Assembly (NCBI RefSeq): GCF_002261185.1
Contig: NZ_NEVQ01000013.1
Coordinates: forward strand, 248,001 to 312,000
Origin: Bordetella genomosp. 4
GTDB taxonomy: Bacteria; Pseudomonadota; Gammaproteobacteria; Burkholderiales; Burkholderiaceae_B
Direction: 5' to 3'
DNA length: 64,000 bases
The position numbers and the translations under genes were made by a program. The notes beneath the pieces are model-generated. The model was given only the letters and a program-made list of their open reading frames with translations, did no database searches and was not told the DNA's origin. Positions 6,076 to 28,921 of the stretch are shown piece after piece (the stretch's first letter is position 1; each line of letters begins with the position of its first letter).

Positions 6076-6082
6076 CCTCGTT

Positions 6083-12219: not shown

Positions 12220-12924
12220 TCATACAGATCGTGTCAGCCCGCCGTCGACCCGAATGTTCTGGCCGGTGATATACGCTGCGCCTTCGCTGGCCAGAAAGGC
12301 AACTGTGGCGGCAATTTCGTCACTCGTGCCGTAACGCTTCATTGGCACGTTGTCACGACGCTCATCACGCTGCGGCAGGCTGTCGATCCATCCGGGCAAG
12401 ACGTTGTTGATGCGGATATTGTCCTGGGCATACGTATCGGCAAAAATCTTGCTGAATGCGGCCAAGCCGGCGCGAAACACTGCCGACGTCGGAAACATAT
12501 CGCTGGGTTCGAACGCCCACGCGGTGGAAATATTGATGATCGCGCCGCCTTTCTGTTTCTGCATGACGGGGGTCACCAGACGGGTCGGGCGGATCACGTT
12601 CATCAGATAGGTATCCATCCCCTTGTGCCAGTCATCGTCGCTGATTTCCAGAATCTGCGCGCGCGGCCCGTGCCCGGCGCTATTGACCAGCACGTCGATC
12701 CGGTCCCATTTCGCGACGGCCGCATCGACCAGGCGGCGCAGATCGTCGTTGGACTGATTGCTGCCCGTGACGCCGATGCCGCCCAGTTCGTTGGCCAGTG
12801 CCTCGCCCTTGCCGGACGACGACAGAATTCCTACCTTGAAACCGTCTGCAGCCAGCCGCTTGGCTGCCGCTGCGCCCATGCCGCTGCCGCCTGCAATGAT
12901 CAGTGCGACTTTTTCTGTTTTCAT
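12220..12924 (-). CDS. Atypical SDR lacking the catalytic Tyr/Lys, last gene of the oxygenase arm
   Basis: A 234-aa short-chain dehydrogenase-fold protein. The nucleotide loop is AGGSGMGAAAA (residues 11-21), with NSAG at 81-84 and a conserved Ser at 133 (NIST). Where classical SDRs carry Tyr-x3-Lys, this protein reads S-A-V-F-R (Ser147, Arg151), so standard SDR redox chemistry is doubtful. ATG 12924 is preferred because AGGAG sits 5 nt upstream. It lies 78 nt downstream of the MarR gene on the same strand and is probably the last gene of the ring-hydroxylase operon. It could act on a pathway intermediate by another mechanism, or be regulatory. In the published pic pathway, as I recall it, no such enzyme is required. 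Confidence 0.78.
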   Translation of the reverse strand: MKTEKVALIIAGGSGMGAAAAKRLAADGFKVGILSSSGKGEALANELGGIGVTGSNQSNDDLRRLVDAAVAKWDRIDVLVNSAGHGPRAQILEISDDDWHKGMDTYLMNVIRPTRLVTPVMQKQKGGAIINISTAWAFEPSDMFPTSAVFRAGLAAFSKIFADTYAQDNIRINNVLPGWIDSLPQRDERRDNVPMKRYGTSDEIAATVAFLASEGAAYITGQNIRVDGGLTRSV

Positions 12925-13002
12925 CATGACTCCTGCAAACAAAAAAGATATATGGTGAACGAGAGGGTAGCAGTATCCAGCCCGGCTGGTCCTCGGCGAC
13001 CG

Positions 13003-13545
13003 TCAGAAACCTCGCAGAACCGTGCGGCCATACTGGTTGTTGCCCTCTACCAGCGTCGCGAGCAAGCGCATGAACACCTCACGGCTGCGCGCGTTCAGCG
13101 GTTCCAGCAGGCGCTCCTGGGCGCGAGCCATCCCGGCATGGAGTTCCTCGACCACTCTGGCGCCTTCTTTGGTCAGCTTGGCCTGCCGCGAGCGCTTGTC
13201 TTCGGGGTTGGTGCGGCGTTCGATCAGGCCGCGTTCTTGCAGCCGCTTGACCACGTCGGCGGTGGTGGTGCGGTCCAGCCCCACATCCATGCCTATTTCT
13301 GTCTGGTCCATCCACGGCACGAGCGACAGGGCCGTCAGGATGCCGTACTGGACTGGCGTGATGTTGTGAGCATGACATTCCTCAAAGAACATGGCGTAGT
13401 GGATCTGGTTCAAACGCCGTACAAGGAACCCGGGCCGTTCCCACAGTACCTCGCGGGCGACGTCCGCTGCCTCGTTCGCGCCTGCGGATGCCTTTGGGGA
13501 GGCTGTTTTTCGTGTGACTGGAGTCTGCTTCTTTGATAGTGTCAT
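13003..13545 (-). CDS. picR: MarR-family regulator, candidate PicR
   Basis: A 180-aa winged-helix repressor of the MarR family. After a Lys/Ala-rich N-terminal tail (about 35 aa), LVRRLNQIHYAMFFEEC starts the dimer helix. The DNA-reading part is QTEIGMDVGLDRTTTADVVKRL, followed by a wing with ERRTNPEDKRSRQAKLT. It sits between the oxygenase beta gene (47 nt upstream) and the SDR (78 nt downstream), so it is probably cotranscribed and autoregulated with the arm it controls. MarR proteins usually bind short palindromes at promoters. Three TCAG-TRTG-CTGA palindromes in the locus (17047, 17273, 25338) are the best targets. The name PicR is assigned by analogy with the picolinate cluster of Alcaligenes faecalis. 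Confidence 0.8.
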   Translation of the reverse strand: MTLSKKQTPVTRKTASPKASAGANEAADVAREVLWERPGFLVRRLNQIHYAMFFEECHAHNITPVQYGILTALSLVPWMDQTEIGMDVGLDRTTTADVVKRLQERGLIERRTNPEDKRSRQAKLTKEGARVVEELHAGMARAQERLLEPLNARSREVFMRLLATLVEGNNQYGRTVLRGF

Positions 13546-13592
13546 GCGGCCAAGTTTCCAATCCCCGCCAGTGGCGAGGAAATACTGAGGTT

Positions 13593-14108
13593 TTATACAG
13601 GATGGACCAGATCATTCGCCAGAATGTTGGTATCGTAAATGACGTCGCGTCGTTTTAGCAGCAAACGCCCATGCTCCCGGACAAACACGTCGTGATAGCT
13701 GCCGGCCAGGTGCACCGTCGTGGGGCCTTCCACGAGCGTCTGCATCAATAGGAAGGTGGCGTGCGCCTCGACCTCGCTGCCCTTGTCGTCGATCACGCGC
13801 ACATTGCTGACGATGTGCAGCAAATAACGGGGTGCGAACATTTGGGTACGGGAGATCGCCACCGCGCGATCATGCATCATGTCGCGGCCCTCTGCGTAGA
13901 CCAGGCCGACGGGCAGATTCAATTCTGCATTTTCGCGAGAGGTGATTCGATAGAGCGCGTCGGGCGTAAAAAAATCAGGCCATCGTTCTACATCGCCGCC
14001 ATCCAGCGCCGCACAATACTCCGCATGGAACAGTTCTATTTCGGCTTTCAGCAATACCGCTTTCTCAATGGCCAACCGGCTAGGCACGTAAGTGTTCTTT
14101 TCGTTCAT
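13593..14108 (-). CDS. Ring-hydroxylating oxygenase beta subunit (PicB component)
   Basis: The small subunit of a Rieske non-haem iron ring hydroxylase (SnoaL/NTF2-like fold), 171 aa as is usual. Typical family features include the start EIELFHAEYCAALDGGDVERWPDFFTPDALYRI and later ISRTQMFAPRYLLHIVSNVRV. It has a structural role in an alpha3beta3 oxygenase and carries no metal site. Its start lies 13 nt after the alpha-subunit stop. In the proposed pathway the complex hydroxylates 6-hydroxypicolinate at C3. Taken alone, the subunit would also fit anthranilate- or salicylate-type oxygenases; the assignment rests on the neighbouring 2,5-dihydroxypyridine genes. Confidence 0.88.
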   Translation of the reverse strand: MNEKNTYVPSRLAIEKAVLLKAEIELFHAEYCAALDGGDVERWPDFFTPDALYRITSRENAELNLPVGLVYAEGRDMMHDRAVAISRTQMFAPRYLLHIVSNVRVIDDKGSEVEAHATFLLMQTLVEGPTTVHLAGSYHDVFVREHGRLLLKRRDVIYDTNILANDLVHPV

Positions 14109-14121
14109 GTCGTCGGGCTCT

Positions 14122-15411
14122 TCAAAATTCCATGACTTGGCGGTAGTACTGATACATGGCGCGAATGGCGGCTTCGGAAATCAGCGTGTCGGAGGTTCCT
14201 ACTTTGCCGCTCTCCAGCTTGAGCACGTTGAGATCCGTGCTGGAACGGCGTACGCCTTCTTGAACGAACTTCATGGCTTCGTTGTCTTCCAGGCCCAGAA
14301 AGCCCGCCGGTCCCATCAAATTGCCTTGGCGCAAGCGATGGCGCTGCATCTCGTCGGTGTCATCCTCATAGCCGAACATGGTCCATTGCATGATCATGCT
14401 GTTAGGGCCGTTGGGAATAATGTGACGCACGCCCAGGGTATTCATCTCGCGCTGCACGATCAGATTCGGCCAAATGGTCTGCATCGTCACTGACCAAGGC
14501 GAGTCAAATTCCTTGATGTACTCCAGAAACCGATCATCGCGCAGGCGCAGGCCATCGTGGAAAGAGCGCATCTCTTTCTTGTTTTCCTCGCTCACCGTCG
14601 CGTACTTATCCTCGCTCTTGGCCGATGCCATCGTGCCATGGCGGCCATGGGCAGTATCGACCGTCATCGCCGATTTATTGCCCGCCACGAGCAGTCCGAA
14701 CACGACCAGGAATGAATGCAGCAGCGTGGCGTGATAGGGATCCTTCAGGTTTTCGTGATACATCTTCCAGTTGCAGGGCAACTCGTTGCGGTAATAGCCC
14801 AGTATTTTCAGCGGACGCCCTGGAAATACCGCGTCGAAATCCAAGAGCATCTCGGGCGTGAGATAGTCCTCCAGCGGTTCGACGTCGTGTGAGTACGACG
14901 CAAAAATCACGCCATGACGGGTGGTCACGTTCAGCTTGCGCAGGCCGTGCTCTTCGTTGCGGAAATCCCGCGGCATGCCGCCTGCCTTGTTGACCCCGCG
15001 CTTGAAGGGGACGCCCTGCAAGTTGCCCTTCAGGTCATAAGACCACTGGTGATACGGACAAACGAACTCTGCGGTCTTGCCTTGCCCATGCCGGCAAAAT
15101 TCCGCACCACGATGCGCGCAGCGATTTTCAAAGACATGCAGGCTGCCGTCTTCCGCGCGTGAAACCACCACGGGAACGGCGCCAACATAAGAACGTTTAT
15201 AACTACCGGGCTCCGGTACTTCCGCCTCCAAGCCGACGAAATTCCATGTCTTTCCGCGAAAGATCCGGTCCTGTTCGCGCTCGTAGACATCCTGGCTGGT
15301 ATAGACCCAGTCAGGCACATAATGCAACGCGTCCTCTGGCCACACACAGTCGGCCAGCGGAGGGTCTTTTCGGGCGGGCGTAATGCCGATCACGGTTTGT
15401 GATTGATACAT
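14122..15411 (-). CDS. Ring-hydroxylating oxygenase alpha subunit (PicB component)
   Basis: The catalytic subunit of a Rieske oxygenase, 429 aa. The Rieske [2Fe-2S] ligands are Cys98, His100, Cys118 and His121 (C-x-H-x17-C-x2-H). The mononuclear iron site is His227, His232 and Asp375, with Asp224 (ENLKDPYHATLLH) in the bridging position. It most resembles the anthranilate/salicylate-type alpha subunits. In this locus I infer that it 3-hydroxylates 6-hydroxypicolinate to 3,6-dihydroxypicolinate, as described for the four-component PicB of Alcaligenes faecalis. AGGAG precedes ATG 15411. Electrons would come from the ferredoxin and reductase encoded just upstream. A distinct aromatic carboxylate substrate cannot be excluded from the sequence. 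Confidence 0.87.
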   Translation of the reverse strand: MYQSQTVIGITPARKDPPLADCVWPEDALHYVPDWVYTSQDVYEREQDRIFRGKTWNFVGLEAEVPEPGSYKRSYVGAVPVVVSRAEDGSLHVFENRCAHRGAEFCRHGQGKTAEFVCPYHQWSYDLKGNLQGVPFKRGVNKAGGMPRDFRNEEHGLRKLNVTTRHGVIFASYSHDVEPLEDYLTPEMLLDFDAVFPGRPLKILGYYRNELPCNWKMYHENLKDPYHATLLHSFLVVFGLLVAGNKSAMTVDTAHGRHGTMASAKSEDKYATVSEENKKEMRSFHDGLRLRDDRFLEYIKEFDSPWSVTMQTIWPNLIVQREMNTLGVRHIIPNGPNSMIMQWTMFGYEDDTDEMQRHRLRQGNLMGPAGFLGLEDNEAMKFVQEGVRRSSTDLNVLKLESGKVGTSDTLISEAAIRAMYQYYRQVMEF

Positions 15412-15439
15412 GGATAAAGCTCCTGAATGATGTGCGCTG

Positions 15440-16711
15440 TCAGGCTGGTTGCGCCATGCACGATTTAACGAATGGTTTCAAGCCAGTGGCCGTGTCTGCA
15501 AAGACCTCTGCGCGAATGCGAACCGATTGCTCGAACAGCGGACGCAATACTCGCAAGTCGCCTCCCGCGTTGATGGCCACGCCGTGTACCGGGACGCCGT
15601 CGCGCAACCCCAGATACAAGCATTTGGGAACAGTGTCATCGGGTGCGGCGTCGCCGCGCAGGACATACTCGAGGCCGGGGGACGGGGCGCCCAATATCTG
15701 GATATTGCAGCCCAGCTGATCAGTCCAGAACCAGGGGTAGGGGACTGCGGGCCTAGGCGCATTCAGGATGGCAGCCGCGGCGATGGCGGCTTGGGTGTTC
15801 GCGTTCTGCCACGACTCGATCCGCACAGGGGAGTCGCCCGGGGACTGATACTGGCTGGCGCAGTCACCTGCTGCCCATATGTACTCGTTCGATGTCCTGC
15901 AGTGCCTGTCCACCAGCACGCCGCCAGTCTTGGCGCAAATCGACAGATTGGCGGCGCGGGCAAGCGTGGTATCTGGCGTCAGGCCCACAGAGACCAACAC
16001 GTGGTCAGCGTCGACGACACTGCCGTCGCCTAACGTGATGGCCATCTTCCCCTCAGCAGAGGTGTCGGCGAGCACGCTGGTCACCGCGACACCCAGGCGC
16101 ACGTCCAGCCCCATGGCCTGGGCGCGCTGCGATAGCCAATCGCTGACCTGCGCGGGCAACACCCGGCCCAATAATGCAGGTCCGCCTTCGAGCACTGTCA
16201 CGTGGGCGCCGCGCTGCTTGGCGCTCCAGCCGGCCTCCAGACCGAGGAAACCGCCGCCGATCACTACCAATCGCACACCAGGCTTCAGGGCCGAACCCAA
16301 GGTCATTGCGTCGTCGAGGGTCCGCAGCGTGTGCACGGCCGACGAGCGCGGCAACATGGGCAATTGCTTGGCTCGTCCTCCCGTGGCCAGCAGACAGGCG
16401 TCGTATGTCAACGTTCTGCCATCCGACAGGCCGACCTCTCGTCGTTGGGTATCAAGCGATTGAGCGCTGACGCCGTTGATCACCTCGATGTCCTGTTCCG
16501 AATAAAACTCAGCCGGATACAACCTGCCTATGGCGGGATCGACGCTCTGCTCCAGGGCGGCCTTGGACAGGGGAGGGCGCTCGTATGGCAGATGAGGCTC
16601 ATTGCCGATTATCGTGATGCGTCCGTCATAGCCCAGATCGCGCAGCGTGCGTGCCGCGACCGCACCTGTCTGGCCGGCGCCGATGATCAGAATGGTTTTC
16701 GGCGTGAGCAT
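15440..16711 (-). CDS. FAD-dependent ferredoxin reductase of the ring hydroxylase
   Basis: Transfers electrons from NAD(P)H through FAD to the ferredoxin encoded next to it. This 423-aa protein belongs to the BphA4-type pyridine nucleotide-disulfide family. The FAD-binding loop GAGQTGAVAART is near residue 11, LLATGGRAKQLP near 106, the second Rossmann loop VVIGGGFLGLEAGWSAKQRG near 150, and the WAAGDCAS motif near 273. It begins 3 nt after the ferredoxin stop and ends 28 nt before the alpha-subunit start, consistent with one transcript carrying ferredoxin, reductase, alpha and beta genes. There is no 2Fe-2S domain of its own, which is why a separate ferredoxin is needed. Confidence 0.92.
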   Translation of the reverse strand: MLTPKTILIIGAGQTGAVAARTLRDLGYDGRITIIGNEPHLPYERPPLSKAALEQSVDPAIGRLYPAEFYSEQDIEVINGVSAQSLDTQRREVGLSDGRTLTYDACLLATGGRAKQLPMLPRSSAVHTLRTLDDAMTLGSALKPGVRLVVIGGGFLGLEAGWSAKQRGAHVTVLEGGPALLGRVLPAQVSDWLSQRAQAMGLDVRLGVAVTSVLADTSAEGKMAITLGDGSVVDADHVLVSVGLTPDTTLARAANLSICAKTGGVLVDRHCRTSNEYIWAAGDCASQYQSPGDSPVRIESWQNANTQAAIAAAAILNAPRPAVPYPWFWTDQLGCNIQILGAPSPGLEYVLRGDAAPDDTVPKCLYLGLRDGVPVHGVAINAGGDLRVLRPLFEQSVRIRAEVFADTATGLKPFVKSCMAQPA

Positions 16712-16714
16712 GGT

Positions 16715-17026
16715 TCAGGTGTCCAGTTGGGCATAGACGGCGCCGTCCTCGACGCGAACCGGGTAAACCCGGATAGGTACCGTGGCGGGTCCGCATTGGG
16801 GAATGCCCGTACGCAAATCGAACTGTGCTTGATGCAGCGGGCATTCCACACAGCCGTCTTCCACATACCCCTCGGCCAACATGGCATGGCCGTGCGTACA
16901 GATGCCGTCGGAAAGAAAGAACTCGCCGCCGCATTTGTATAACGCCAACTGAGCCTGGCCTGCCGTGATTGAAATGGCGCTGTCGTCGTCGATATCCTGC
17001 ACCGAGGCAATGCGAGTCCAATTCAT
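16715..17026 (-). CDS. Rieske-type ferredoxin of the ring hydroxylase
   Basis: A small cytoplasmic electron carrier of 103 aa linking the reductase to the oxygenase. The Rieske cluster ligands are Cys43, His45, Cys62 and His65 (C-x-H-x16-C-x2-H). The protein starts at ATG 17026 (MNWTRIASVQDI), with AAGGAAA seven bases upstream; an in-frame upstream codon would swallow this ribosome site and the operator. It is the first gene of the minus arm. A promoter with TAGAAT as -10 and the 12-bp palindrome 17047-17058 lie immediately upstream, so expression of the whole oxygenase operon is probably set here by the MarR regulator. Confidence 0.92.
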   Translation of the reverse strand: MNWTRIASVQDIDDDSAISITAGQAQLALYKCGGEFFLSDGICTHGHAMLAEGYVEDGCVECPLHQAQFDLRTGIPQCGPATVPIRVYPVRVEDGAVYAQLDT

Positions 17027-17046
17027 GGGTTTTCCTTTGAAAATGA

Positions 17047-17058
17047 TCAGCACACTGA
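17047..17058. promoter_or_regulatory. Candidate MarR operator A (TCAG-TGTG-CTGA on minus strand)
   Basis: A 12-bp site with perfect TCAG/CTGA arms. It begins four bases downstream of the predicted -10 of the oxygenase operon and therefore covers the likely transcription start. The identical 12-mer recurs at 25338-25349, and a one-base variant at 17273-17284. Confidence 0.7.
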
Positions 17059-17062
17059 ATAA

Positions 17063-17091
17063 ATTCTAGCAGTGAATTTTTTTCTTATCCA
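17063..17091 (-). promoter_or_regulatory. Predicted sigma70 promoter of the oxygenase arm
   Basis: Reading on the minus strand, TGGATA (17091-17086, 4 of 6 to TTGACA) and TAGAAT (17068-17063, 5 of 6 to TATAAT) are separated by 17 bp. The ferredoxin ATG lies 37 nt beyond the -10. Operator A follows at once, a repressible arrangement. Confidence 0.5.
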
Positions 17092-17252
17092 GTTCTGAAT
17101 CGCGCATTTTTCAGGCATTGGGGAATGCCCTGATTGTCTTGTCGCTTCCGGCTTTAATCGGTTAATTAATGCATATATATAGGAACATTTGCGGAAATGT
17201 CGCTGCGTCGAATTATCGAAAATCGCGCGCGTCAGCTTCGGAAAAAAACCTA

Positions 17253-17282
17253 TTGACTGATTCCATAAATAGTCAGCATACT
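17253..17282 (+). promoter_or_regulatory. Predicted sigma70 promoter of the TRAP/hydroxylase arm
   Basis: TTGACT at 17253-17258 (5 of 6) and CATACT at 17277-17282 (4 of 6) are 18 bp apart. The operator-like palindrome 17273-17284 covers the whole -10 element, which would block RNA polymerase when bound. The leader to the receptor ATG (17408) would be about 120 nt. I see no other clear structure between 17092 and 17252 apart from AT-rich sequence. Confidence 0.45.
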
Positions 17283-17284
17283 GA
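17273..17284. promoter_or_regulatory. Candidate MarR operator B (TCAG-CATA-CTGA)
   Basis: Perfect TCAG/CTGA arms. Read on the minus strand the core is TATG instead of the TGTG of sites A and C. It overlaps the predicted -10 of the plus arm. Confidence 0.62.
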
Positions 17285-17407
17285 TCATAAATCAGCTTGA
17301 GTTTTGGTTTGGTCGTGTCATGGTCCGGTGGCACGGTCTCTGCGCAGCGCGCCGGATACTCCACAGCAAAGGGCCGAATACGGCCATTCATAACAAGGGA
17401 AATAGCT

Positions 17408-18493
17408 ATGCAACGTCGTCGTTTCTTGACCCACGCCGCAGGGATCAGTGCAGTGGCCGTAGCGGCGCCTGCCGTGGCGCAGAGCGCTACAACCGTCCGC
17501 TGGCGCATGTCCACCAGTTGGCCCAAAAGCCTCGATGCCATGTACGGCTCGGCCGAGGCGCTCACCAAACGCGTCGCCGAGTTGACCGACGGGAAATTTG
17601 AAATCCGCGCCTTTCCCGCCGGGGAGCTCGTGCCTCCCGCACAGAACATGGACGCTGTCAGCAATGGCACCGTAGAGTGCAACCACGTTCTCGCCACCTT
17701 TCATATCGGAAAGAACACGGCGTTGGCTTTCGATACCGGTTTATCGTTCGGATTGAGCGCGCGCCAACATAACGCATGGATTCACTACGGTGGCGGCCTG
17801 GAAAAGCTGCGCGCGCTCTACAAGAAATACAACATCGTCAATCATGTCTGTGGCAACGTGGGTGTCCAGATGGGAGGATGGTTCCGCCGCGAGATTAAAA
17901 CCGTGGAAGATCTCAAGGGGCTCAAAATGCGCATCGGCGGCATTGGGGGAATGGTGCTCTCGAAACTGGGCGCAATCCCTCAACAGATTCCGCCTGGCGA
18001 TATCTATCCCTCGCTGGAAAAAGGCACGATTGACGCGGCTGAATGGATCGGCCCCTATGATGATCTGAAGCTCGGCCTGAACAAAGTCGCACCATACTAT
18101 TACTCGCCCGGCTGGTTCGAGGGCAGTGCCTCGATCACCACCATGGTCAATGCCGAAGCCTGGAATGCGTTGCCGCCCCTTTTCAAGGCGGCCTTCGAAT
18201 GCGCCAGCTCCGAGCAGACCATGAAGATGCTCGCCAAATACGATGCCGGCAACCCCGGCGCCTTGAAATCGCTGATCGCCGGCGGCGCAAAGCTGTCGTT
18301 CTTTCCCCGCGATGTCATGGATGCCGCTTACAAGGCCTCGCAAGAACTCTGGAAAGAACTGGGCGCGTCCAATCCCGATTTCGCCGCGCTGTATCCGCAA
18401 TGGGCCGAGTTCCAGCGCGACGAGGCGAGTTGGTTCCGTGTGGCCGAGAGCGCACTTGATAACTACACATTCCAGGCAGTGACCCGCCGTTGA
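17408..18493 (+). CDS. TRAP transporter substrate-binding protein (DctP/TakP type), candidate picolinate receptor
   Basis: A periplasmic receptor of a tripartite ATP-independent transporter, 361 aa. The N-terminus MQRRRFLTHAAGISAVAVA is a signal peptide with a twin-Arg-like start, cleaved near AQS (residues 24-26). The mature protein has the family elements FEIRAFPAGELVPP, DLKGLKMRIGGIGG with the carboxylate-binding Arg, and DAAEWIGPYDD as in 2-oxoacid and chloroaromatic-acid receptors. ATG 17408 is preceded by AAGGGA. It heads the plus arm, directly before the molybdenum hydroxylase genes, while its membrane subunits lie after them. Binding of picolinate (or 6-hydroxypicolinate) is inferred from this context. 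Confidence 0.88.
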   Translation: MQRRRFLTHAAGISAVAVAAPAVAQSATTVRWRMSTSWPKSLDAMYGSAEALTKRVAELTDGKFEIRAFPAGELVPPAQNMDAVSNGTVECNHVLATFHIGKNTALAFDTGLSFGLSARQHNAWIHYGGGLEKLRALYKKYNIVNHVCGNVGVQMGGWFRREIKTVEDLKGLKMRIGGIGGMVLSKLGAIPQQIPPGDIYPSLEKGTIDAAEWIGPYDDLKLGLNKVAPYYYSPGWFEGSASITTMVNAEAWNALPPLFKAAFECASSEQTMKMLAKYDAGNPGALKSLIAGGAKLSFFPRDVMDAAYKASQELWKELGASNPDFAALYPQWAEFQRDEASWFRVAESALDNYTFQAVTRR

Positions 18494-18534
18494 ACCATGT
18501 GGCGGCGAGCCGCCGCCGATTTCCTGAGGTATTT

Positions 18535-21851: not shown

Positions 21852-23038
21852 ATAGAGTTTCCATGACAGTCAATGGCCAACAGGTGTGCCATGACGTTCC
21901 CCCGCGGATGCATCTGGCGGATTATCTGCGCGACAAAGAGCATCTCACCGGTACGCACCTGGGGTGCGAACACGGCGTGTGCGGAGCCTGTACGGTGCTG
22001 CTCGACGGCAAGCCCGTCAGATCCTGCATAACGTTCTCGGTTGCTTGCGAGTCGCGCAACATCACCACGGTCGAAGGCTACGACGATGACCCGGTCATGC
22101 AGCGTTTGCGCCTGGCTTTTCGCGCAAATCACGCCCTGCAGTGCGGGTTTTGTACACCAGGCATGTTGGCGACCGCCCGCGACATCGTGTTGCGCCTGCC
22201 GGATGCGGACGAAAAGCGGATTCGTATCGAACTCTCCGGCAATCTGTGCCGCTGCACGGGGTATATGGGGATAGTCGCGGCAATACGGTCGGTCCTCGAC
22301 GAGTTGCGCGAGATGCCCGATCCCGCGGTCACGGCCTTGCGCGCCGCGCTATCCACGCCAGCGATCATTCCTATCGTCCACGAAAAGACGATGCCGGTTT
22401 TCGAGCCGGCAGAGCCCATGAACGGCGCTGTGGAACGGGAACAACCCTCGGCGCCTGCCTCGCCCGGAAGAGGCGAGAGCAAAGGAAAAGGGCAGCATAT
22501 CAACGGTGAGTTCACATTGCCCTTTCCGCCCGAACAGGTCTGGTCATTCATGGTGGATCTCCCCATGGTGGCGGGCTGCCTGCCCGGTGCGCAGATAACG
22601 TCCCAACAGGGCAACGAAGTCCAGGGTCACATCGGCATCAAATTCGGTCCGATGCAGGCCGCGTTCCAGGGGACTGCGCAACTCGAGCTCGACAACGAAA
22701 AGCGCCTCGCCGTGTTGCATGGCACGGGGCGCGATACCGTCAGCCAGTCTCGCGCACAGGGCGATATCCAGTACCGGATATTGGCCGCAGGGCAGGGCAC
22801 GCGAGTCGAGATTGATATGGACTATGCGCTGCAGGGTCCATTGGCACAGTTCTCGCGCTCAGGCCTGGTGCAGGACTTCGTGCGCCGCATGATCGCCGAA
22901 TTCGGGCGCAACGTCACGCGCCGCATCGAGAATCCGAGCTCGGCGGACGAGCCAGTCAAGGCCTTGAATCCCGTCGCGCTGTTCTTCGGCGTACTCAAAG
23001 ACCGGATTCTGCGCTTGTTCCAGCGACGCCGGCGATAG
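21848..23038 (+). CDS. [2Fe-2S] small subunit fused to a CoxG (SRPBCC) domain
   Basis: A 396-aa fusion. Residues 1 to about 160 are a standard two-cluster small subunit. A plant-type cluster is bound by Cys40, Cys45, Cys48 and Cys60 ([12 protein letters not shown]). The second cluster uses LQCGFCTPG and NLCRCTGY. A Pro/Glu/Ser-rich linker (about 165-215) leads to a CoxG-like domain: [42 protein letters not shown], then [19 protein letters not shown]. The tail [23 protein letters not shown] is hydrophobic then basic. In CO dehydrogenase loci CoxG is a separate protein linked to membrane recruitment, so the fusion may bring the hydroxylase to the membrane near the TRAP importer or respiratory chain. 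That last step is inference. Confidence 0.87.
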
Positions 23039-23101
23039 CCCGGTACGCACGGCGTGACGCTTTCCCATCAACCGCACTTTATCGACATCAAGAGACTGCC
23101 A

Positions 23102-23653
23102 ATGCAAGCCTTGCTTAGGGTATCCCATGTCATAGACGCAATGAGCACTTTTGTAGGCCGCATTGTGGCTTGGCTTATCCTGGCCATGGTGCTGATCAGC
23201 ACGGCCAACGCCTTTGGGCGCAAGCTTTTTCATACCAGCTCGAATGCGTGGCTGGAAATCCAGTGGTATATGTTCGGCGCACTGTTCCTGCTGACAGCAG
23301 GCTATGCATTGCTGCGCAATGATCACGTGCGCGTCGATATCATCGCTCAGCAATTCTCGCGCCGGGCCCAAGTACGCATGGAAATTGTGGGCGTGCTGTT
23401 TTTCCTCTTGCCCGGTTGCGGTCTGATCATGTGGCTGGCGTGGCCCATGTTTTGGGAATCCTATGTCAGTGGCGAGATGTCTTCCAATTCAGGTGGCCTG
23501 ATCCGCTGGCCCGCGAAATTGCTGGTGCCGTTGGGTTTCACCTTATTGATCGTGGCGGCCCTGTCGCACCTCATCAAGTGCGTGGGATTTCTGAAAGGCC
23601 TGCGCGGCGATCCGCGCGAACGCGAAACGAATTCGGCAAAAGAGGCAGACTGA
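23102..23653 (+). CDS. TRAP transporter small permease (DctQ type)
   Basis: The four-helix small membrane subunit of a TRAP transporter, 183 aa. Hydrophobic segments are seen near residues 20-38 (GRIVAWLILAMVLISTANA), 58-75, 100-122 and 142-160, with the DctQ-like EIQWYMFGALFLLTAGYALLRNDHVRVD. I use ATG 23102; an in-frame GTG at 23054 lacks a ribosome site. The gene follows the hydroxylase operon by 63 nt and is one base from the large permease. With the receptor at 17408 it matches the mannitol/chloroaromatic branch of TRAP systems, in which 4-chlorobenzoate importers are known. This supports an aromatic or heteroaromatic acid as substrate. Confidence 0.88.
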   Translation: MQALLRVSHVIDAMSTFVGRIVAWLILAMVLISTANAFGRKLFHTSSNAWLEIQWYMFGALFLLTAGYALLRNDHVRVDIIAQQFSRRAQVRMEIVGVLFFLLPGCGLIMWLAWPMFWESYVSGEMSSNSGGLIRWPAKLLVPLGFTLLIVAALSHLIKCVGFLKGLRGDPRERETNSAKEAD

Positions 23654-23654
23654 C

Positions 23655-25316
23655 ATGGAATTCTTTATCGGCAATATGGCGCCGATTATGTTCGCCACGC
23701 TGATTTTTCTGCTCTTGACTGGGTTTCCGGTAGCGTTCGCATTGATGGCCAACGGCATCCTGTTCGGCGTGATTGGCATGGAACTGGGCCTGCTTTCGCC
23801 GTCGCTGTTCCAGGCATTGCCGCAACGCGTATTTGGCGTCGTATCCAACGATACCTTGCTGGCCTTGCCGTTCTTTACGTTCATGGGCCTGGTACTGGAA
23901 CGATCCGGCATGGCAGAGGAACTGCTGGAAACCGTAGGGCAGCTCTTTGGTCCAGTGCGTGGCGGCCTGGCGGTGGCAGTGGTGGCGGTCGGCGCCGTTC
24001 TGTCTGCAACGACCGGGGTCGTGTCGGCGTCCATCATTTCGATGGGGCTGATTTCCTTGCCCATCATGCTGCGGTATGGCTATGACCGCCGACTGGCCAC
24101 CGGGGTGATCGCCGCCTCTGGCACGCTATCTCAGATTATTCCTCCCTCGTTGACCTTGATCATCCTGGCCGATCAACTGGGCCGCTCCGTGGGAGACATG
24201 TATCGCGGCGCGATCTTGCCAGGCATATTGATGATCGTCGCGTACCTGATCTACGCCCTCGTGCTCACCTGGATTCGACCGGCCGCGGGGCCGGCCATGC
24301 CGGTCGCTGCGAGAGATTTCGGTCAGGCCAATGGATCATCGGGGATTCGGTCCTTGGTGGTGTTGATGCTGATCTCCAGCCTTTGCGCCTATTTCCTGAC
24401 CGTCAATGTCATTGATCCGAACGCACCGATCGACGAGACGGTCGTGATCGCCATCATCTGTTGGGGCTCCGTTGCGTTTCTGTTGGCCTCGCTCAACCGG
24501 ATGTTGCGTCTGGGATGGCTTTCAACGATTGCCGAGCGCGTCACGTTTGCATTGATCCCTCCGCTGGCGCTCATCTTTCTGGTGCTGGGCACGATATTCA
24601 TCGGGCTGGCCACGCCCACGGAAGGAGGAGCAATGGGAGCGCTGGGCGCAATCGTCATGGCGCTCTTCAAGCGTCGGCTCAGCTTGCCCCTGTTGAAACA
24701 AGCCATGGACTCCAGCGCCCGGTTGACGTGTTTTGCACTGTTCATCCTGATCGGTTCCACGGTGTTCGGTCTCACGTTTCGCGCTGTGAATGGCGATCTT
24801 TGGGTGGAACATCTGCTGGTGTCCGTACCAGGAGGCGAAACCGGCTTTCTGATTTTCGTCATGGCCTTCGTGTTCGTCGCCGCATTCTTCCTGGATTTTT
24901 TCGAGCTGGCTTTCATTATCGTGCCCTTGTTGGGGCCGGTGGCGGACAAACTGGGTATCGACCTGATCTGGTTTGGCGTGCTGCTGGCGCTGAACATGCA
25001 AACGTCATTCATGCATCCGCCATTCGGCCTGGCCTTGTTTTACCTGCGATCGGTTGCGCCGCGCGAGGATTATCCAGACAGGGTGACGGGCGCCATGATT
25101 CCAAAGGTCACCACAGGCCAGATCTATTGGGGTTCCTTGCCGTTCATCGCCATTCAGTTGCTCATGGTGGCCATCGTTCTGTGTATTCCCTCGTTAGTGA
25201 CGCACTACCGCGATGGCGTGAAAGAAATCGATTCTTCCAATGTGCGCATAGAGATGCAAGGAGGGGGCTTTGACACCAACTACGGCGCCAACATGAGCAA
25301 TCCTTTCGGCAAGTAG
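23655..25316 (+). CDS. TRAP transporter large permease (DctM type)
   Basis: The substrate-translocating membrane subunit, 553 aa. This is long for DctM (about 430 aa) but usual for the mannitol/chloroaromatic branch, which has extra helices in the middle (here about residues 230-300). Signature elements are LPFFTFMGLVLERSGMAEEL near residue 73, TTGVVSASIISMGLISLP, and GVIAASGTLSQIIPPSLTLI with the IPPS turn. LATPTEGGAMGALGAIVMAL starts the second repeat. It begins one nucleotide after the small permease. A weak hairpin with a T-run overlaps its stop codon, so part of the transcripts may end here before the decarboxylase gene. Confidence 0.9.
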   Translation: MEFFIGNMAPIMFATLIFLLLTGFPVAFALMANGILFGVIGMELGLLSPSLFQALPQRVFGVVSNDTLLALPFFTFMGLVLERSGMAEELLETVGQLFGPVRGGLAVAVVAVGAVLSATTGVVSASIISMGLISLPIMLRYGYDRRLATGVIAASGTLSQIIPPSLTLIILADQLGRSVGDMYRGAILPGILMIVAYLIYALVLTWIRPAAGPAMPVAARDFGQANGSSGIRSLVVLMLISSLCAYFLTVNVIDPNAPIDETVVIAIICWGSVAFLLASLNRMLRLGWLSTIAERVTFALIPPLALIFLVLGTIFIGLATPTEGGAMGALGAIVMALFKRRLSLPLLKQAMDSSARLTCFALFILIGSTVFGLTFRAVNGDLWVEHLLVSVPGGETGFLIFVMAFVFVAAFFLDFFELAFIIVPLLGPVADKLGIDLIWFGVLLALNMQTSFMHPPFGLALFYLRSVAPREDYPDRVTGAMIPKVTTGQIYWGSLPFIAIQLLMVAIVLCIPSLVTHYRDGVKEIDSSNVRIEMQGGGFDTNYGANMSNPFGK

Positions 25317-25326
25317 GATTTTTTTT
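25299..25326 (+). terminator. Possible weak rho-independent terminator/attenuator
   Basis: AATCCT (25299-25304) pairs with AGGATT (25315-25320) over a 10-nt loop and is followed by a run of eight T (25319-25326). The stem has only two G-C pairs, so termination would be partial. It separates the transporter/hydroxylase genes from the decarboxylase gene, which has its own operator-like site. Confidence 0.4.
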
Positions 25327-25337
25327 AGAACCATTCA

Positions 25338-25349
25338 TCAGTGTGCTGA
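25338..25349. promoter_or_regulatory. Candidate MarR operator C (TCAG-TGTG-CTGA)
   Basis: The exact 12-bp sequence of operator A, read here on the plus strand, 64 nt before the decarboxylase ATG and just after the weak terminator. This suggests a third, internal promoter under the same regulator. I do not see convincing -35/-10 boxes around it. Confidence 0.62.
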
Positions 25350-25413
25350 ATACTTTCGGCCAGAGCTAGCGGACGGTCTGCCGTCCAGCATTTAATCACC
25401 AGGAAACAGCGCC

Positions 25414-26367
25414 ATGCGAAAGATTGCATTTGAAGAGCATTACACCGCCCCAGGCTTTCAGGAATACTCCAAAGTATTCGCGCAGCATATCGACGCCGCC
25501 ACCTATGCAGAGACCGGACGCCGTCTCGCCGACTTCGACGAGCTGCGGCTCGCGGATATGGACCAGAATGGCATTGACTATGTCATCCTGTCGCAGACGG
25601 GACCAGGGGTGCAGGCCGAACCGGATCCCGCGACGGCGTTGCGACGCGCACGGGAGAATAATGACTTCCTGGCCGAGCGCGTCGCCAAGAACAACCGCAG
25701 ATACGGCGGCTTTGCCGTCATCCCGATGCATGATCCCGAAATCGCGGCCGATGAGCTCGAACGCACGGTGCGCGACTATGGTTTCAAAGGCGCATTGATC
25801 AATGGCCATACGAATGGCACCTATTACGATGGACGCGAGTACGACGTATTCTGGGAACGTGTGCAGGCGCTGCAGGCGCCGATCTACTTGCATCCTGCCG
25901 ATGCGTACGTAATGCCCCATGCCTATGGCGGCCATCCCGTGATCGAACGCGCGACTTGGGGGTGGGGCGTCGAGACAGGTACGCATGCGCTGCGCTTGCT
26001 GTTTGGGGGAGTGTTCGATCGATTCCCCGGTGTGCGCTTGATCTTGGGACATATGGGAGAGGGGCTGCCATTTCTGCGCTGGCGCTTTGATAGCCGATTT
26101 GCGGTGTATCCCCATGGTGTGAGGCTCGAACGGGCGCCTTCGGCATATTTCGGGTCCAACATCTTGATCACCACCTCGGGTGTCTGCTCGCATCCGACGC
26201 TGGTGGCTGCCATTGCCGAAATGGGCGCAGAGGCCGTCATGTTTTCGGTGGACTATCCCTACGAGTCCAGCGCGATCGCCGCCGAGTTCATCGAAACCGC
26301 ACCGCTCGATGAGGCCACCCGCGCATTGGTGTGCCATGGCAATGCCGAGAGACTATTCAAACTCTGA
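25414..26367 (+). CDS. picC: Amidohydrolase-2 family decarboxylase, candidate 3,6-dihydroxypicolinate decarboxylase PicC
   Basis: A non-oxidative decarboxylase of the ACMSD/gamma-resorcylate decarboxylase family, 317 aa. Metal and catalytic residues are in family positions: Glu7 and His9 in FEEH, His160 in IYLHPAD, His213 in LILGHMGE, and Asp280 in FSVDYPYE. GALINGHTNG matches the substrate loop region of gamma-resorcylate decarboxylases. The gene order decarboxylase, deformylase, dioxygenase, amidase equals picC-E-D-F of Alcaligenes faecalis, where PicC converts 3,6-dihydroxypicolinate to 2,5-dihydroxypyridine. CAGGAAA precedes ATG 25414. Other hydroxy-aryl carboxylates are possible substrates, but the next genes need 2,5-dihydroxypyridine. 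Confidence 0.86.
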   Translation: MRKIAFEEHYTAPGFQEYSKVFAQHIDAATYAETGRRLADFDELRLADMDQNGIDYVILSQTGPGVQAEPDPATALRRARENNDFLAERVAKNNRRYGGFAVIPMHDPEIAADELERTVRDYGFKGALINGHTNGTYYDGREYDVFWERVQALQAPIYLHPADAYVMPHAYGGHPVIERATWGWGVETGTHALRLLFGGVFDRFPGVRLILGHMGEGLPFLRWRFDSRFAVYPHGVRLERAPSAYFGSNILITTSGVCSHPTLVAAIAEMGAEAVMFSVDYPYESSAIAAEFIETAPLDEATRALVCHGNAERLFKL

Positions 26368-26405
26368 TCGATCCCGACGCGGATTCTTCTCAGCAAGGAT
26401 TTCCT

Positions 26406-27236
26406 ATGAGCACCTATCAATACGGCGGTCATGTTCATGCCAATGGCATACGCCAGCATTATTTGCGTTATGGCGGGACGAAACCGGGACGAGATCCCAT
26501 CATCATCATTCCCGGGATTACCAGCCCGGCGGTGACATGGGGTTTTGTGGCCGAGCGTTTCGGATCGACGTTCGATACTTACGTCCTGGATGTGCGGGGC
26601 AGGGGATTGTCCCAGGCGGATGCGTCTCTCGATTACAGCCTGGACGCACAGGCGGCGGATGTCCTGGCCTTTGCGCAGGCGCTGGGCCTCGAGCGATACA
26701 GCATCGTGGGGCATTCCATGGGAGCACGCATCGGCATTCGCGCCGCACGCAGCCAAGCGTCGGCGCTCCACCGTCTCGTGATGGTGGATCCGCCCGTGTC
26801 TGGTCCCGGACGTCGCCCGTATCCGGCGCAGTTGCCCTGGTATGTCGGATCCATGGCTCAGGCGCGCGCGGGAATGAGCGCAGCAGACATGTCCGTATTT
26901 TGCCCGACCTGGACGGAAGAACAACGGCAATTGCGGGCGCAATGGCTGCATACGTGCGACGAACGCGCCATCCTGGCGAGCTTTGACGGCTTTCATATGG
27001 ACGACATTCATGCCGACCTGACCCATCTGAAAATCCCGAGCCTGCTCATCACTGCCGAGCGCGGAGACGTGGTGCGCGATGACGATGTCAATGAGCTGCA
27101 GGCCTTGGTGCCCGGGTTGCTGCATGTTCGAGTGCCGGACGCTGGCCACATGATTCCGTGGGACAACGAGGAAGGCTTTTATGCCGCGTTCGGCACATTT
27201 CTTGGTGCGGCCCTGCCGGGCCCGAATCCACGTTGA
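26406..27236 (+). CDS. picE: N-formylmaleamate deformylase (PicE/NicD)
   Basis: An alpha/beta hydrolase of 276 aa that should release formate from N-formylmaleamate to give maleamate. The nucleophile is Ser104 in GHSMGAR, the acid Asp128 in VMVDPP, and the base His248 in DAGHMIP. As I recall, NicD of Pseudomonas putida uses Ser101, Asp125 and His245. The constant offset of three, and the unusual placement of the acid after strand 6, support orthology. ATG 26406 has AAGGA seven bases upstream. The gene lies 38 nt after the decarboxylase and 9 nt before the dioxygenase. Confidence 0.9.
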   Translation: MSTYQYGGHVHANGIRQHYLRYGGTKPGRDPIIIIPGITSPAVTWGFVAERFGSTFDTYVLDVRGRGLSQADASLDYSLDAQAADVLAFAQALGLERYSIVGHSMGARIGIRAARSQASALHRLVMVDPPVSGPGRRPYPAQLPWYVGSMAQARAGMSAADMSVFCPTWTEEQRQLRAQWLHTCDERAILASFDGFHMDDIHADLTHLKIPSLLITAERGDVVRDDDVNELQALVPGLLHVRVPDAGHMIPWDNEEGFYAAFGTFLGAALPGPNPR

Positions 27237-27245
27237 GGTGACACG

Positions 27246-28301
27246 ATGCCGGTAAGTGATTACGCAATGGTCAACGCCTGGCAGCAGGTATTGACGCTGT
27301 CCCAACTGCAACCGGGACAAACCGTCACCATCCTGACGGGGGCAACGACACACGCCCAGACCCTTTCCACCGCTCTTATCGCGGCGCAGTCGATGGGCGC
27401 CATCGTCAATCGCCTGGACTTGCCCCCGGTCAATGGCGACAAGGCGCTCAGCCGCGACCCGCTCGCATACCTGGGGACGACACCCTTGACGGGCAACCAG
27501 GCCGCCATCGCCGCGCTAAAGGCCAGTGATCTCGTGCTCGATCTGATGACGCTGCTGTTCTCGCCCGAACAGCACGAGATACTCAAAAGCGGCACCAAGA
27601 TCCTGCTGGCAGTGGAACCGCCCGAAATCCTCGTCCGCATGGTGCCCACGGCAGCGGACCGCGAACGCGTCAAACAGGCATCTGCCTGCATCGAGGCAGC
27701 CAAGACCATGCACGTGACTTCGCCGGCAGGGACCGACGTACGCTTCGCGCTTGGGGAGTTTCCTGCGATCAGTGAGTACGGATACGTGGACGAACCCGGC
27801 AGGTGGGATCATTGGCCCAGCGGATTTGCACTGACCTGGCCTGACGAAGGCAGTGCCGAAGGGGTGATTGTCATCGACCGTGGCGACATTCTGCTGCCGC
27901 AGAAATGCTACGCGAATGACGCGATCAGAATAACCGTGTCCGGTGGGTATGCCACGCATATCGAGGGCGGTGTCGACGCCGAGCTGCTGAGCAGCTACAT
28001 GGCTTCCTTTAACGATCCGGAAGGCTATGCGATCTCGCATATAGGCTGGGGCCTGCAGCCGCGCGCACATTGGAGCACGTTGTCGCTCTATGACCGTGAG
28101 GCCTCTATTGGCATGGATGCCCGTGCATTCGAGGGGAATTTCTTGTTTTCACTAGGTCCCAATAACGAGGCTGGCGGCAATCGCACGACTGCCTGCCATA
28201 TCGACATTCCGTTGCGTGGCTGCACGGTTCGCCTGGATGACCAGATTGTCGTCGAACACGGCAAGGTCTTATTTCCCCCACCATCAGGAGCGAAGCAATG
28301 A
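27246..28301 (+). CDS. picD: 2,5-dihydroxypyridine 5,6-dioxygenase (PicD/NicX)
   Basis: An extradiol-type Fe(II) dioxygenase that opens 2,5-dihydroxypyridine to N-formylmaleamate. It belongs to the NicX family, which is related to M29 metallopeptidases rather than to classical extradiol enzymes. It is 351 aa, the usual size. The three iron ligands reported for Pseudomonas putida NicX (His265, His318, Asp320, from memory) fall at exactly the same numbers here, in ISHIGWG and ACHIDIP. GAGGTGACACG supplies the ribosome site for ATG 27246. The stop overlaps the start of the amidase gene (ATGA). This is the most diagnostic gene of the locus, because 2,5-dihydroxypyridine arises in nicotinate, picolinate and nicotine breakdown. 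Confidence 0.95.
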   Translation: MPVSDYAMVNAWQQVLTLSQLQPGQTVTILTGATTHAQTLSTALIAAQSMGAIVNRLDLPPVNGDKALSRDPLAYLGTTPLTGNQAAIAALKASDLVLDLMTLLFSPEQHEILKSGTKILLAVEPPEILVRMVPTAADRERVKQASACIEAAKTMHVTSPAGTDVRFALGEFPAISEYGYVDEPGRWDHWPSGFALTWPDEGSAEGVIVIDRGDILLPQKCYANDAIRITVSGGYATHIEGGVDAELLSSYMASFNDPEGYAISHIGWGLQPRAHWSTLSLYDREASIGMDARAFEGNFLFSLGPNNEAGGNRTTACHIDIPLRGCTVRLDDQIVVEHGKVLFPPPSGAKQ

Positions 28302-28921
28302 CACGACAGCAGGATGTCGAGACCTACAGCCGCCAAAGCTTCGGCACGGCCATGGCGCCCAAAGCGCCGTATGGCCTGTTGATCGTCGATTTTGTCAACG
28401 GATTCGCCGATCCCGCCGTTTTCGGCGGAGGCAATATTCGCCCCGCCATCGATCGCACCGTGGCATTGCTGGATGCGGCTCGATCACGTAAATGGCCGGT
28501 AGCGCATTCGCGTATCGTCTATGCCGATGATGGCGCCGACGCCAATGTTTTCTCGTTGAAAGTGCCCGGCATGCTTGGGCTGAAGGAGCACGAGTCCAAT
28601 AGCGCCATCGTGCCCGAACTGACACCGATCGCAGGGGAGTTGGTCGTGCGCAAGAACGTGCCGTCGGCGTTCTTTGGCACAGGGCTCGCGGCATGGCTAT
28701 CGTTTCATGGCGTGCAAACCCTGTTGGTGGCCGGCGCGGTCACCAGCGGCTGTGTGCGGGCCAGTGTCGTCGATGCCATGCAATACGGCTTTCGGCCCCT
28801 GGTGGTCACTGACTGCGTAGGGGACCGGGCGATTGCGCCGCATGAGGCGAACTTGTTCGATATGGAGCAAAAATACGCCACGTTGATGTCGAGAGACGAG
28901 GCGCTGGCGATAAGCGCCTAG
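28298..28921 (+). CDS. picF: Maleamate amidohydrolase (PicF/NicF)
   Basis: A cysteine hydrolase of the isochorismatase fold, 207 aa, converting maleamate to maleate and ammonia. The triad is Asp31 (LLIVDFVNGFAD), Lys119 (VRKNVPSAFFGT) and Cys152 (AGAVTSGCVRAS). The cis-peptide region before the Cys is also typical. It is the last gene of the plus arm and overlaps the dioxygenase stop by 4 nt. The product maleate still needs isomerisation to fumarate. No maleate isomerase (Asp/Glu racemase family) gene follows or occurs elsewhere in the window. Confidence 0.92.
   Translation: MTRQQDVETYSRQSFGTAMAPKAPYGLLIVDFVNGFADPAVFGGGNIRPAIDRTVALLDAARSRKWPVAHSRIVYADDGADANVFSLKVPGMLGLKEHESNSAIVPELTPIAGELVVRKNVPSAFFGTGLAAWLSFHGVQTLLVAGAVTSGCVRASVVDAMQYGFRPLVVTDCVGDRAIAPHEANLFDMEQKYATLMSRDEALAISA

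What the first reader, a model, noticed from the sequence alone, without database searches (positions are those of the whole stretch)
12220..28921. Complete divergent picolinate-degradation locus with its own transporter
Seen: a four-component Rieske hydroxylase, MarR regulator, three-subunit Mo hydroxylase, gamma-resorcylate-type decarboxylase, deformylase, 2,5-dihydroxypyridine dioxygenase and maleamate amidase in two divergent operons. Known (from memory of the Alcaligenes faecalis pic cluster): picolinate is 6-hydroxylated by a Mo enzyme, 3-hydroxylated by a four-component monooxygenase, decarboxylated to 2,5-dihydroxypyridine, and opened; the order picC-E-D-F is the same here. The dioxygenase ligands His265/His318/Asp320 match NicX numbering exactly, and the deformylase triad is offset from NicD by a constant three residues. 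Inference: the organism grows on picolinate.
Basis: partly seen in the sequence, partly recalled or inferred. Interest (0 to 1): 0.85.

Follow-up and report, generated by a model that had tools for sequence, protein, structure and literature searches.

The report
Bordetella picolinate-degradation gene cluster
This stretch carries a known kind of gene cluster predicted to let the bacterium take up and break down picolinic acid, a small pyridine compound; it is an ordinary member of its kind, with likely repressor sites and a possible membrane tether on its first enzyme as the only fresh details.

Summary
Window 12220-28921 holds, in two divergent units, a MarR regulator, a four-component Rieske oxygenase, a TRAP transporter, a three-subunit molybdenum hydroxylase, and the decarboxylase, deformylase, dioxygenase and amidase of picolinate breakdown. 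The genome is most likely a Bordetella; B. ansorpii and B. genomosp. 13 carry the same cluster (oxygenase alpha 95% identical). Of 67 full-length loci found by the decarboxylase alone, 64 also carry the oxygenase alpha. A 2023 paper already lists Bordetella species, B. ansorpii included, as carriers, so this is a new member of a known kind. 'Complete' is too strong: the maleate isomerase gene (picG) is not in the locus; a homologue lies on another contig. Additions here: palindromes TCAG-N4-CTGA at both divergent promoters and upstream of picC, with similar sites in relatives, fit a MarR (PicR) repressor; a CoxG-like domain with a basic tail is fused to the hydroxylase's iron-sulphur subunit, suggesting a membrane-tethered enzyme. 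The SDR gene at 12220 stays unexplained. No growth or enzyme data exist for this organism.

The parts
12220..12942 (-). SDR oxidoreductase, last gene of the minus unit (ATG probably at 12927); role unknown, may be a passenger
   Evidence: Pfam adh_short_C2 3.1e-46; no match at E<=1e-30 in the B. genomosp. 13 or B. ansorpii genomes
13003..13545 (-). MarR regulator, probable PicR
   Evidence: Pfam MarR 8.1e-13; 78-79% identical in the same position in B. ansorpii and B. genomosp. 13
13593..14108 (-). Rieske oxygenase beta subunit (PicB component)
   Evidence: NCBIfam AndAd 2.6e-35, below its cut-off
14122..15411 (-). Rieske oxygenase alpha subunit, proposed 6-hydroxypicolinate 3-monooxygenase (PicB component); Rieske motif CxH-17-CxxH from residue 98, ENLKDPYHATLLH from 220
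   Evidence: nearest solved chain is salicylate 5-hydroxylase 7c8z, E 2.5e-124; motifs; 95% identical in B. ansorpii and B. genomosp. 13
15440..16711 (-). FAD ferredoxin reductase (PicB component)
   Evidence: NCBIfam HcaD 8.9e-113, below its cut-off
16715..17053 (-). Rieske ferredoxin (PicB component); ATG probably at 17026
   Evidence: NCBIfam AndAb 1.3e-34, below its cut-off
17047..17058 (.). TCAGCACACTGA, proposed PicR operator, just downstream of a -10-like hexamer (17063-17068) of the minus unit
17273..17284 (.). TCAGCATACTGA, proposed PicR operator, overlapping the -10-like hexamer (17277-17282) of the plus unit
17297..18493 (+). DctP-type TRAP solute receptor (ATG probably at 17408, starting MQRRRFLT)
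   Evidence: Pfam DctP 1e-54; sequence
18490..20967 (+). Mo hydroxylase large subunit, proposed picolinate 6-hydroxylase (PicA); ATG probably at 18535
   Evidence: nearest solved chain quinoline 2-oxidoreductase 1t3q_B, E 1.9e-136
20964..21851 (+). Mo hydroxylase FAD subunit
   Evidence: Pfam FAD_binding_5 4.9e-42
21848..23038 (+). Mo hydroxylase 2Fe-2S subunit with fused CoxG-like domain (residues 218-360) and basic hydrophobic C-terminal tail
   Evidence: 1t3q_A 6.1e-47 for residues 2-147 and CoxG 8uds_D 1.8e-20 for 218-360; Pfam COXG 1.4e-16; tail
23054..23653 (+). DctQ, TRAP small membrane subunit
   Evidence: Pfam DctQ 5.1e-19
23655..25316 (+). DctM, TRAP large membrane subunit
   Evidence: NCBIfam dctM 1.3e-86, above its cut-off
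25338..25349 (.). TCAGTGTGCTGA, proposed PicR operator upstream of picC
   Evidence: no promoter-like pair was found in 25250-25450
25414..26367 (+). 3,6-dihydroxypicolinate decarboxylase (PicC)
   Evidence: gamma-resorcylate decarboxylase 3s4t 9.3e-76; His160 and His213 invariant in 10 of 10 aligned
26331..27236 (+). N-formylmaleamate deformylase (PicE); ATG probably at 26406
   Evidence: 4l0c deformylase 4.1e-91
27246..28301 (+). 2,5-dihydroxypyridine 5,6-dioxygenase (PicD)
   Evidence: 7cn3 2.3e-121, ligand positions kept
28298..28921 (+). maleamate amidohydrolase (PicF)
   Evidence: 3ot4, deposited as putative isochorismatase, 5e-94; that 3ot4 is a maleamate amidohydrolase is recalled

Best explanation
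A picolinate (pic) catabolic cluster in a Bordetella. TRAP transporter DctPQM imports picolinate or a close relative (inferred). The Mo hydroxylase, nearest in solved structures to an enzyme that hydroxylates next to a ring nitrogen, makes 6-hydroxypicolinate and is probably held at the membrane by its fused CoxG-like domain so that its electrons reach the respiratory chain (inferred). The four-component Rieske enzyme, nearest to salicylate 5-hydroxylase, hydroxylates para to the new hydroxyl to give 3,6-dihydroxypicolinate. PicC decarboxylates it to 2,5-dihydroxypyridine, PicD opens the ring, and PicE and PicF release formate and ammonia to give maleate. A maleate isomerase encoded elsewhere makes fumarate. 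The MarR protein represses the two divergent promoters, and perhaps picC, by binding TCAG-N4-CTGA sites until a pathway compound releases it (inferred).
For: Families and motifs; nearest solved structures for six catalytic proteins; PicC His160/His213 equal the essential H163/H216 of B. bronchiseptica PicC. In the fetched regions of 10 relatives with picC of 66-74% identity, oxygenase alpha is present in 9 of 10, picE, picD and picF in 9 of 10, MarR in 9 of 10, Mo large subunit and DctP in 7 of 10 (recounted; some contigs are short). Of 67 full-length named loci, 64 carry alpha and 60 carry picD near picC. B. ansorpii has the same units in the same order, and B. genomosp. 13 as far as its contig goes. 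Separate nic-like loci in the same genome make nicotinate an unlikely substrate. Three strict operator-like sites against 0.12 expected in the window; at least two TCAG-N4-CT sites in 10 of 10 divergent intergenic regions, window included. A MarR-type PicR repressor of pic is in print for A. faecalis (title seen in a reference list).
Against: No sequence of the characterised A. faecalis JQ135 or RB50 proteins was at hand, so identity to them is unmeasured. picG is missing from the locus, and its homologue's contig has no strict operator site. One relative (G014) has picC, alpha and beta but neither picD, picE, picF nor the Mo large subunit in the 40 kb fetched. The site upstream of picC has no promoter-like pair beside it. 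The JQ135 papers were not readable. No expression or growth data.
Confidence: 0.92

Rival explanations
1. It is a nicotinate (nic) cluster: the Mo hydroxylase makes 6-hydroxynicotinate, which then goes to 2,5-dihydroxypyridine.
For: The lower-pathway enzymes are shared between nic and pic routes; the picD, picE and picF homologues elsewhere in this genome are 70-78% identical.
Against: No flavin monooxygenase of NicC type among the cluster's genes; a NicC-like gene (405 aa) and a NicA/NicB-like pair lie beside the other two picD copies (labels are my reading). The nicotinate route as I recall it needs no separate decarboxylase and no four-component Rieske enzyme.
Confidence: 0.03
2. The cluster works the same way but its natural substrate is a relative of picolinate (for example 6-hydroxypicolinate from outside, or another carboxypyridine).
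For: Mo hydroxylases and TRAP receptors can be broad (general knowledge). Of 61 loci with both alpha and picD, 11 lack a Mo large subunit of at least 55% identity in the fetched flank: 4 (L109, L110, L125, L140) have one of 32-33% and 7 show none.
Against: The window's type of Mo large subunit is in 54 of 67 full-length loci, together with the decarboxylase family whose RB50 member is specific for 3,6-dihydroxypicolinate.
Confidence: 0.05
3. The cluster is decaying: relative to B. ansorpii it lacks picG and a three-gene ABC transporter.
For: Both are present in B. ansorpii at those junctions and absent from the window.
Against: The remaining genes are full length and open with the tested motifs intact. 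Relatives lack them too: in the fetched regions picG is found in 5 of 10 and the ABC receptor in 6 of 10. A picG homologue is elsewhere, and A. faecalis JQ135 also has picG at a distance (PMC10142695).
Confidence: 0.04

Closest known systems
pic cluster of Bordetella bronchiseptica RB50 and Alcaligenes faecalis JQ135 (PMC10142695: abstract, introduction, results, discussion and legends read; the JQ135 primary papers are not held)
   Same: PicA three subunits, PicB four components, PicC, PicE, PicD, PicF, a regulator gene picR, and a gene called picT divergent from picB (its product is not named in the text I read; here the divergent gene is DctP)
   Different: here picG is not between picC and picE as in RB50; the MarR gene ends the picB unit instead of lying near picC
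pic clusters of B. ansorpii (L069, L168, L170) and B. genomosp. 13 (L068, L169, L171)
   Same: same units in the same order, alpha 95%, picC 88-91% identical; the contig of B. genomosp. 13 ends just after picC
   Different: both carry an ABC transporter (receptor, ATPase, permease) between the small Mo subunit and DctQ, and B. ansorpii has picG; the window has neither, and has an extra SDR gene
Salicylate 5-hydroxylase (7c8z)
   Same: nearest solved alpha subunit, iron-ligand motif kept; hydroxylation para to a ring hydroxyl
   Different: proposed substrate is a pyridine acid; paired here with a HcaD-like reductase and a Rieske ferredoxin
Aerobic CO dehydrogenase with CoxG (8uem, 8uds; O. carboxidovorans CoxG, PMC4240915, passages seen)
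   Same: Mo hydroxylase working with a CoxG domain thought to recruit it to the membrane
   Different: here the CoxG domain is fused to the iron-sulphur subunit and the proposed substrate is a pyridine acid

Membership tests
pic (picolinate) cluster | three-subunit Mo hydroxylase (PicA) | tested here: met
pic (picolinate) cluster | four-component oxygenase (PicB1-B4) | tested here: met
pic (picolinate) cluster | 3,6-dihydroxypicolinate decarboxylase PicC with the two essential histidines | tested here: met
   His160 and His213 invariant in 10 of 10, offset three from H163/H216; activity not tested
pic (picolinate) cluster | PicD, PicE, PicF for 2,5-dihydroxypyridine to maleate | tested here: met
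pic (picolinate) cluster | maleate isomerase PicG in the cluster | tested here: not met
   no match in the window; homologue 65% identical to a relative's PicG at G000:C1:19223. Not required of the locus: PMC10142695 says picG is distant in A. faecalis too, and it is found in 5 of 10 relatives' regions
pic (picolinate) cluster | MarR repressor PicR with TCAG-N4-CTNN operators (operator form recalled) | tested here: inconclusive
   regulator present and sites at the divergent promoters and upstream of picC; no promoter-like pair at picC; binding not testable
pic (picolinate) cluster | sequence identity to JQ135 or RB50 Pic proteins | not testable with these tools
   their sequences were not held; named Bordetella, Achromobacter, Pusillimonas and other relatives used instead
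pic (picolinate) cluster | growth on picolinate through 6-hydroxypicolinate | not testable with these tools
   needs culture or purified enzymes
nic (nicotinate) cluster | NicC-type flavin monooxygenase for 6-hydroxynicotinate | tested here: not met
   none among the cluster's proteins scanned; NicC-like gene beside another picD copy
CoxG domain proteins | CoxG/SRPBCC domain by sequence | tested here: met
   8uds_D 1.8e-20, Pfam COXG 1.4e-16; fold model not obtained, membrane binding not tested

The most novel reading that the evidence does not exclude
Picolinate dehydrogenase is a membrane-tethered respiratory enzyme: its iron-sulphur subunit carries a built-in CoxG domain and a basic hydrophobic C-terminal tail, so picolinate 6-hydroxylation feeds electrons to the quinone pool at the membrane. 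Loci around PicC with a distantly related Mo hydroxylase (about 31-33% identical large subunit) also hold a CoxG-like sequence, in the two read (L125, L143) as a separate protein with a similar tail, which suggests that the tether matters to the pathway.
Probability: 0.45. Interest if true: 0.4.

Novelty: new member of a known kind. Interest (0 to 1): 0.25.

Why it matters
It adds one more Bordetella to the known carriers of picolinate catabolism and gives clean coordinates for a PicA-PicB-PicC-PicEDF set. The site map predicts a shared repressor for the divergent promoters and perhaps picC, and the fused CoxG domain gives a testable answer to where a pyridine Mo hydroxylase sends its electrons.

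Tried and rejected
Nicotinate cluster: rejected for lack of a NicC-type gene here and because NicC-like and NicA/NicB-like genes stand beside the two other picD copies. A pathway role for the SDR at 12220: not supported; no match at E<=1e-30 in the two nearest named Bordetella, and matches of 66-68% in Achromobacter xylosoxidans (G429) and Bordetella sp. BOR01 (G430) lie on other contigs than their pic alpha genes, but two Ramlibacter pic loci (L116, L121) do carry a 47-49% homologue, so it is left open. ORF listings around it in L116, B. ansorpii and B. genomosp. 13 told nothing. The JQ135 cluster paper and the PicR paper are not held. Searches for PicR text (20 of 40 papers listed), for picolinate with TRAP transporters in Bordetella (2 papers) and for picolinic acid with CoxG (6 papers) gave, in the listings, nothing that describes this cluster's transporter or a CoxG role in it. 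Tail amphipathicity: in 9 of 23 rows at most 3% of shuffles reached the observed moment, in the window's own row 13% did, and the segment was picked as the best of 13 positions while the shuffles were not, which favours the observed value; so this measure is weak.
Full report
What is there. Between 12220 and 28921 the window encodes two divergent units. On the minus strand, reading away from the centre: Rieske ferredoxin, FAD ferredoxin reductase, Rieske oxygenase alpha, oxygenase beta, MarR regulator, and an SDR oxidoreductase. On the plus strand: DctP, Mo hydroxylase large subunit, FAD subunit, 2Fe-2S subunit, DctQ, DctM, decarboxylase, deformylase, dioxygenase, amidase. NCBIfam hits of the Rieske components are strong but below the curated cut-offs, so they fix the family, not the substrate.

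What the enzymes most resemble. Nearest solved structures are quinoline 2-oxidoreductase for the Mo large subunit, salicylate 5-hydroxylase for the oxygenase alpha, gamma-resorcylate decarboxylase for PicC, 2,5-dihydroxypyridine 5,6-dioxygenase for PicD, a deformylase for PicE and the isochorismatase-type protein 3ot4 for PicF. The chemistry fits picolinate: hydroxylation next to the ring nitrogen, then hydroxylation para to that hydroxyl (as salicylate 5-hydroxylase does), then loss of the neighbouring carboxyl group. Active-site checks: PicD His265, His318 and Asp320 in place; PicC His160 and His213 at the positions of H163 and H216, whose alanine mutants were inactive in B. bronchiseptica (PMC10142695); PicE catalytic residues offset by three from recalled NicD numbers; alpha Rieske motif and DPYHATLLH present.

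Who carries it. A search of 61 genomes (the window's own and 60 kin) found PicC homologues of 66-74% identity in 10 genomes besides the window's own. The regions around them were fetched. Alpha, at 78-85% identity, is in 9 of the 10; picE, picD and picF in 9; MarR in 9; the Mo large subunit and DctP in 7; picG in 5; the ABC receptor in 6. Two of these have only short contigs (G001, 14 kb; G024, 3.6 kb), and G014 has picC, alpha and beta without the Mo large subunit or picDEF in the 40 kb fetched. A scan of named genomes with an alignment of PicC returned 80 loci (the best 80 of 571 confirmed, from a list that was itself cut), led by B. genomosp. 13 (91%) and B. ansorpii (88%). In 67 of these 80 the locus is at least 20.9 kb long; of those 67, 64 carry alpha at 60% identity or more, 60 picD at 60% or more, 54 the Mo large subunit at 55% or more, and 47 picG at 50% or more (thresholds were mine). 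By contrast 3 of 399 genomes sampled from the order showed an alpha of 60% or more, the window's own being one; that search scored at most 4 candidates per genome. One same-genus genome (G004) has a contig of the same length, with picC at the same place, as a Bordetella sp. BOR01 record, which is why I take the window for a Bordetella; this is inference.

What differs. B. ansorpii has the same units in the same order, with an ABC transporter (receptor, ATPase, permease) between the small Mo subunit and DctQ and with picG between picC and picE; neither has a match in the window. B. genomosp. 13 also has the ABC genes; its contig ends just after picC. These absences are not unique to the window. 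A maleate isomerase homologue 65% identical to a relative's PicG lies at C1:19223 of the same genome, next to a Bug-type receptor gene (that label is mine). The paper notes that picG is also distant in A. faecalis JQ135. The genome has two further picD homologues, at C16:1013706 (75%) and C9:63403 (72%), each with picE and picF homologues; the first stands beside a NicC-like monooxygenase gene and the second beside NicA- and NicB-like genes (labels by my reading of the translations).

Regulation. The palindrome TCAGYRYRCTGA occurs three times in the window: 17047, 17273 and 25338; expected 0.12 by shuffles. With free middle bases there are five in the window (expected 0.63), one of the extra two inside the Mo gene and one far away at 48501. 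In the whole genome the strict form occurs 17 times, against 2 for the reversed control; the other 14 lie outside the window and were not looked into, and none is on the contig of the picG homologue. The first two sites flank the divergent intergenic region: the 17273 site overlaps a -10-like hexamer, and the 17047 site lies just past the -10-like hexamer of the other strand (4 promoter-like pairs in the stretch, 0.7 in shuffles). At the third site, upstream of picC, no promoter-like pair was found. Ten of ten fdx-DctP intergenic regions compared, the window's included, hold at least two TCAG-N4-CT sites, though in two (G026, G009) none has the full CTGA half; ten of ten other loci hold at least one strict site somewhere, against at most 0.10 in first-order simulated sequence. 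This fits a MarR repressor acting on the divergent promoters. That PicR is a MarR-type repressor of pic in JQ135 is known to me from a paper title in a reference list; the motif it binds is recalled, not read.

Electron path. The 2Fe-2S subunit is 396 residues long: residues 2-147 match small subunits and 218-360 match the CoxG protein 8uds_D (E 1.8e-20). Of 89 sequences searched, 55 have a small-subunit hit (53 loci at most, B. ansorpii and B. genomosp. 13 being counted twice); 54 of the 55 also have a CoxG match, and in 47 it lies in the same open frame downstream. The 8 others are L092 (no CoxG match), L122 and L124 (frame interrupted or shifted), and L109, L110, L125, L140 and L143, which have the other Mo hydroxylase type (L140's match is partial). 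In L125 and L143, the two where I saw the CoxG ORF, it is a separate protein with a similar tail; L143 shows no alpha in its flank. All 23 fused proteins that I chose for alignment end in a net-positive tail of positive mean hydrophobicity; amphipathicity was weak by shuffles. CoxG is thought to recruit CO dehydrogenase to the membrane in O. carboxidovorans (PMC4240915, passages); it anchors a glycerol-3-phosphate dehydrogenase in Sulfolobus, and such a role has been proposed for a 3-hydroxypyridine dehydrogenase (PMC11962113, passages). In Sulfolobus the dehydrogenase reduced quinones without CoxG, so an anchor need not carry electrons itself. A membrane tether for this pyridine hydroxylase is a fair inference, not shown, and has a proposed precedent.

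Verdict. The cluster is a new member of a published kind, in a genus already reported to carry it. Interest is low to moderate; the CoxG fusion and the site map are the parts worth a bench test.

Noticed in passing
window 21848-23038: CoxG-like domain and basic tail fused to the iron-sulphur subunit of the Mo hydroxylase; in the same open frame in 47 of 55 sequences with a small-subunit hit.
   Followed up: partly
window 12220-12942: SDR gene after MarR in the minus unit, without match at E<=1e-30 in the two nearest named Bordetella but with a 47-49% homologue in two Ramlibacter pic loci (L116, L121).
   Followed up: partly
L109, L110, L125, L140: Pic loci (Pigmentiphaga and other Burkholderiales) with the usual oxygenase alpha and picD but a Mo hydroxylase large subunit only 32-33% identical to the window's: apparent replacement of the first enzyme.
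   Followed up: partly
L064-L067 (window genome, C16 near 1013706 and C9 near 63403): Two more 2,5-dihydroxypyridine dioxygenase genes, one beside a NicC-like gene and one beside NicA- and NicB-like genes: nicotinate degradation genes apparently split over two places.
   Followed up: partly
L041 3430-6168, L053 10058-12647, L170 about 2965-5485: ABC transporter (nitrate/sulfonate type by my reading) between the small Mo subunit and DctQ in several relatives, missing in the window: a second candidate importer for picolinate.
   Followed up: partly
L056, L057 (G014): PicC, oxygenase alpha and beta and DctM without the Mo large subunit or picDEF in the 40 kb fetched: a partial or scattered pic set.
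   Followed up: no
window 2977-7621: Protein with a GlgE N-terminal domain and a starch synthase-type glycosyltransferase side by side upstream of the cluster.
   Followed up: no
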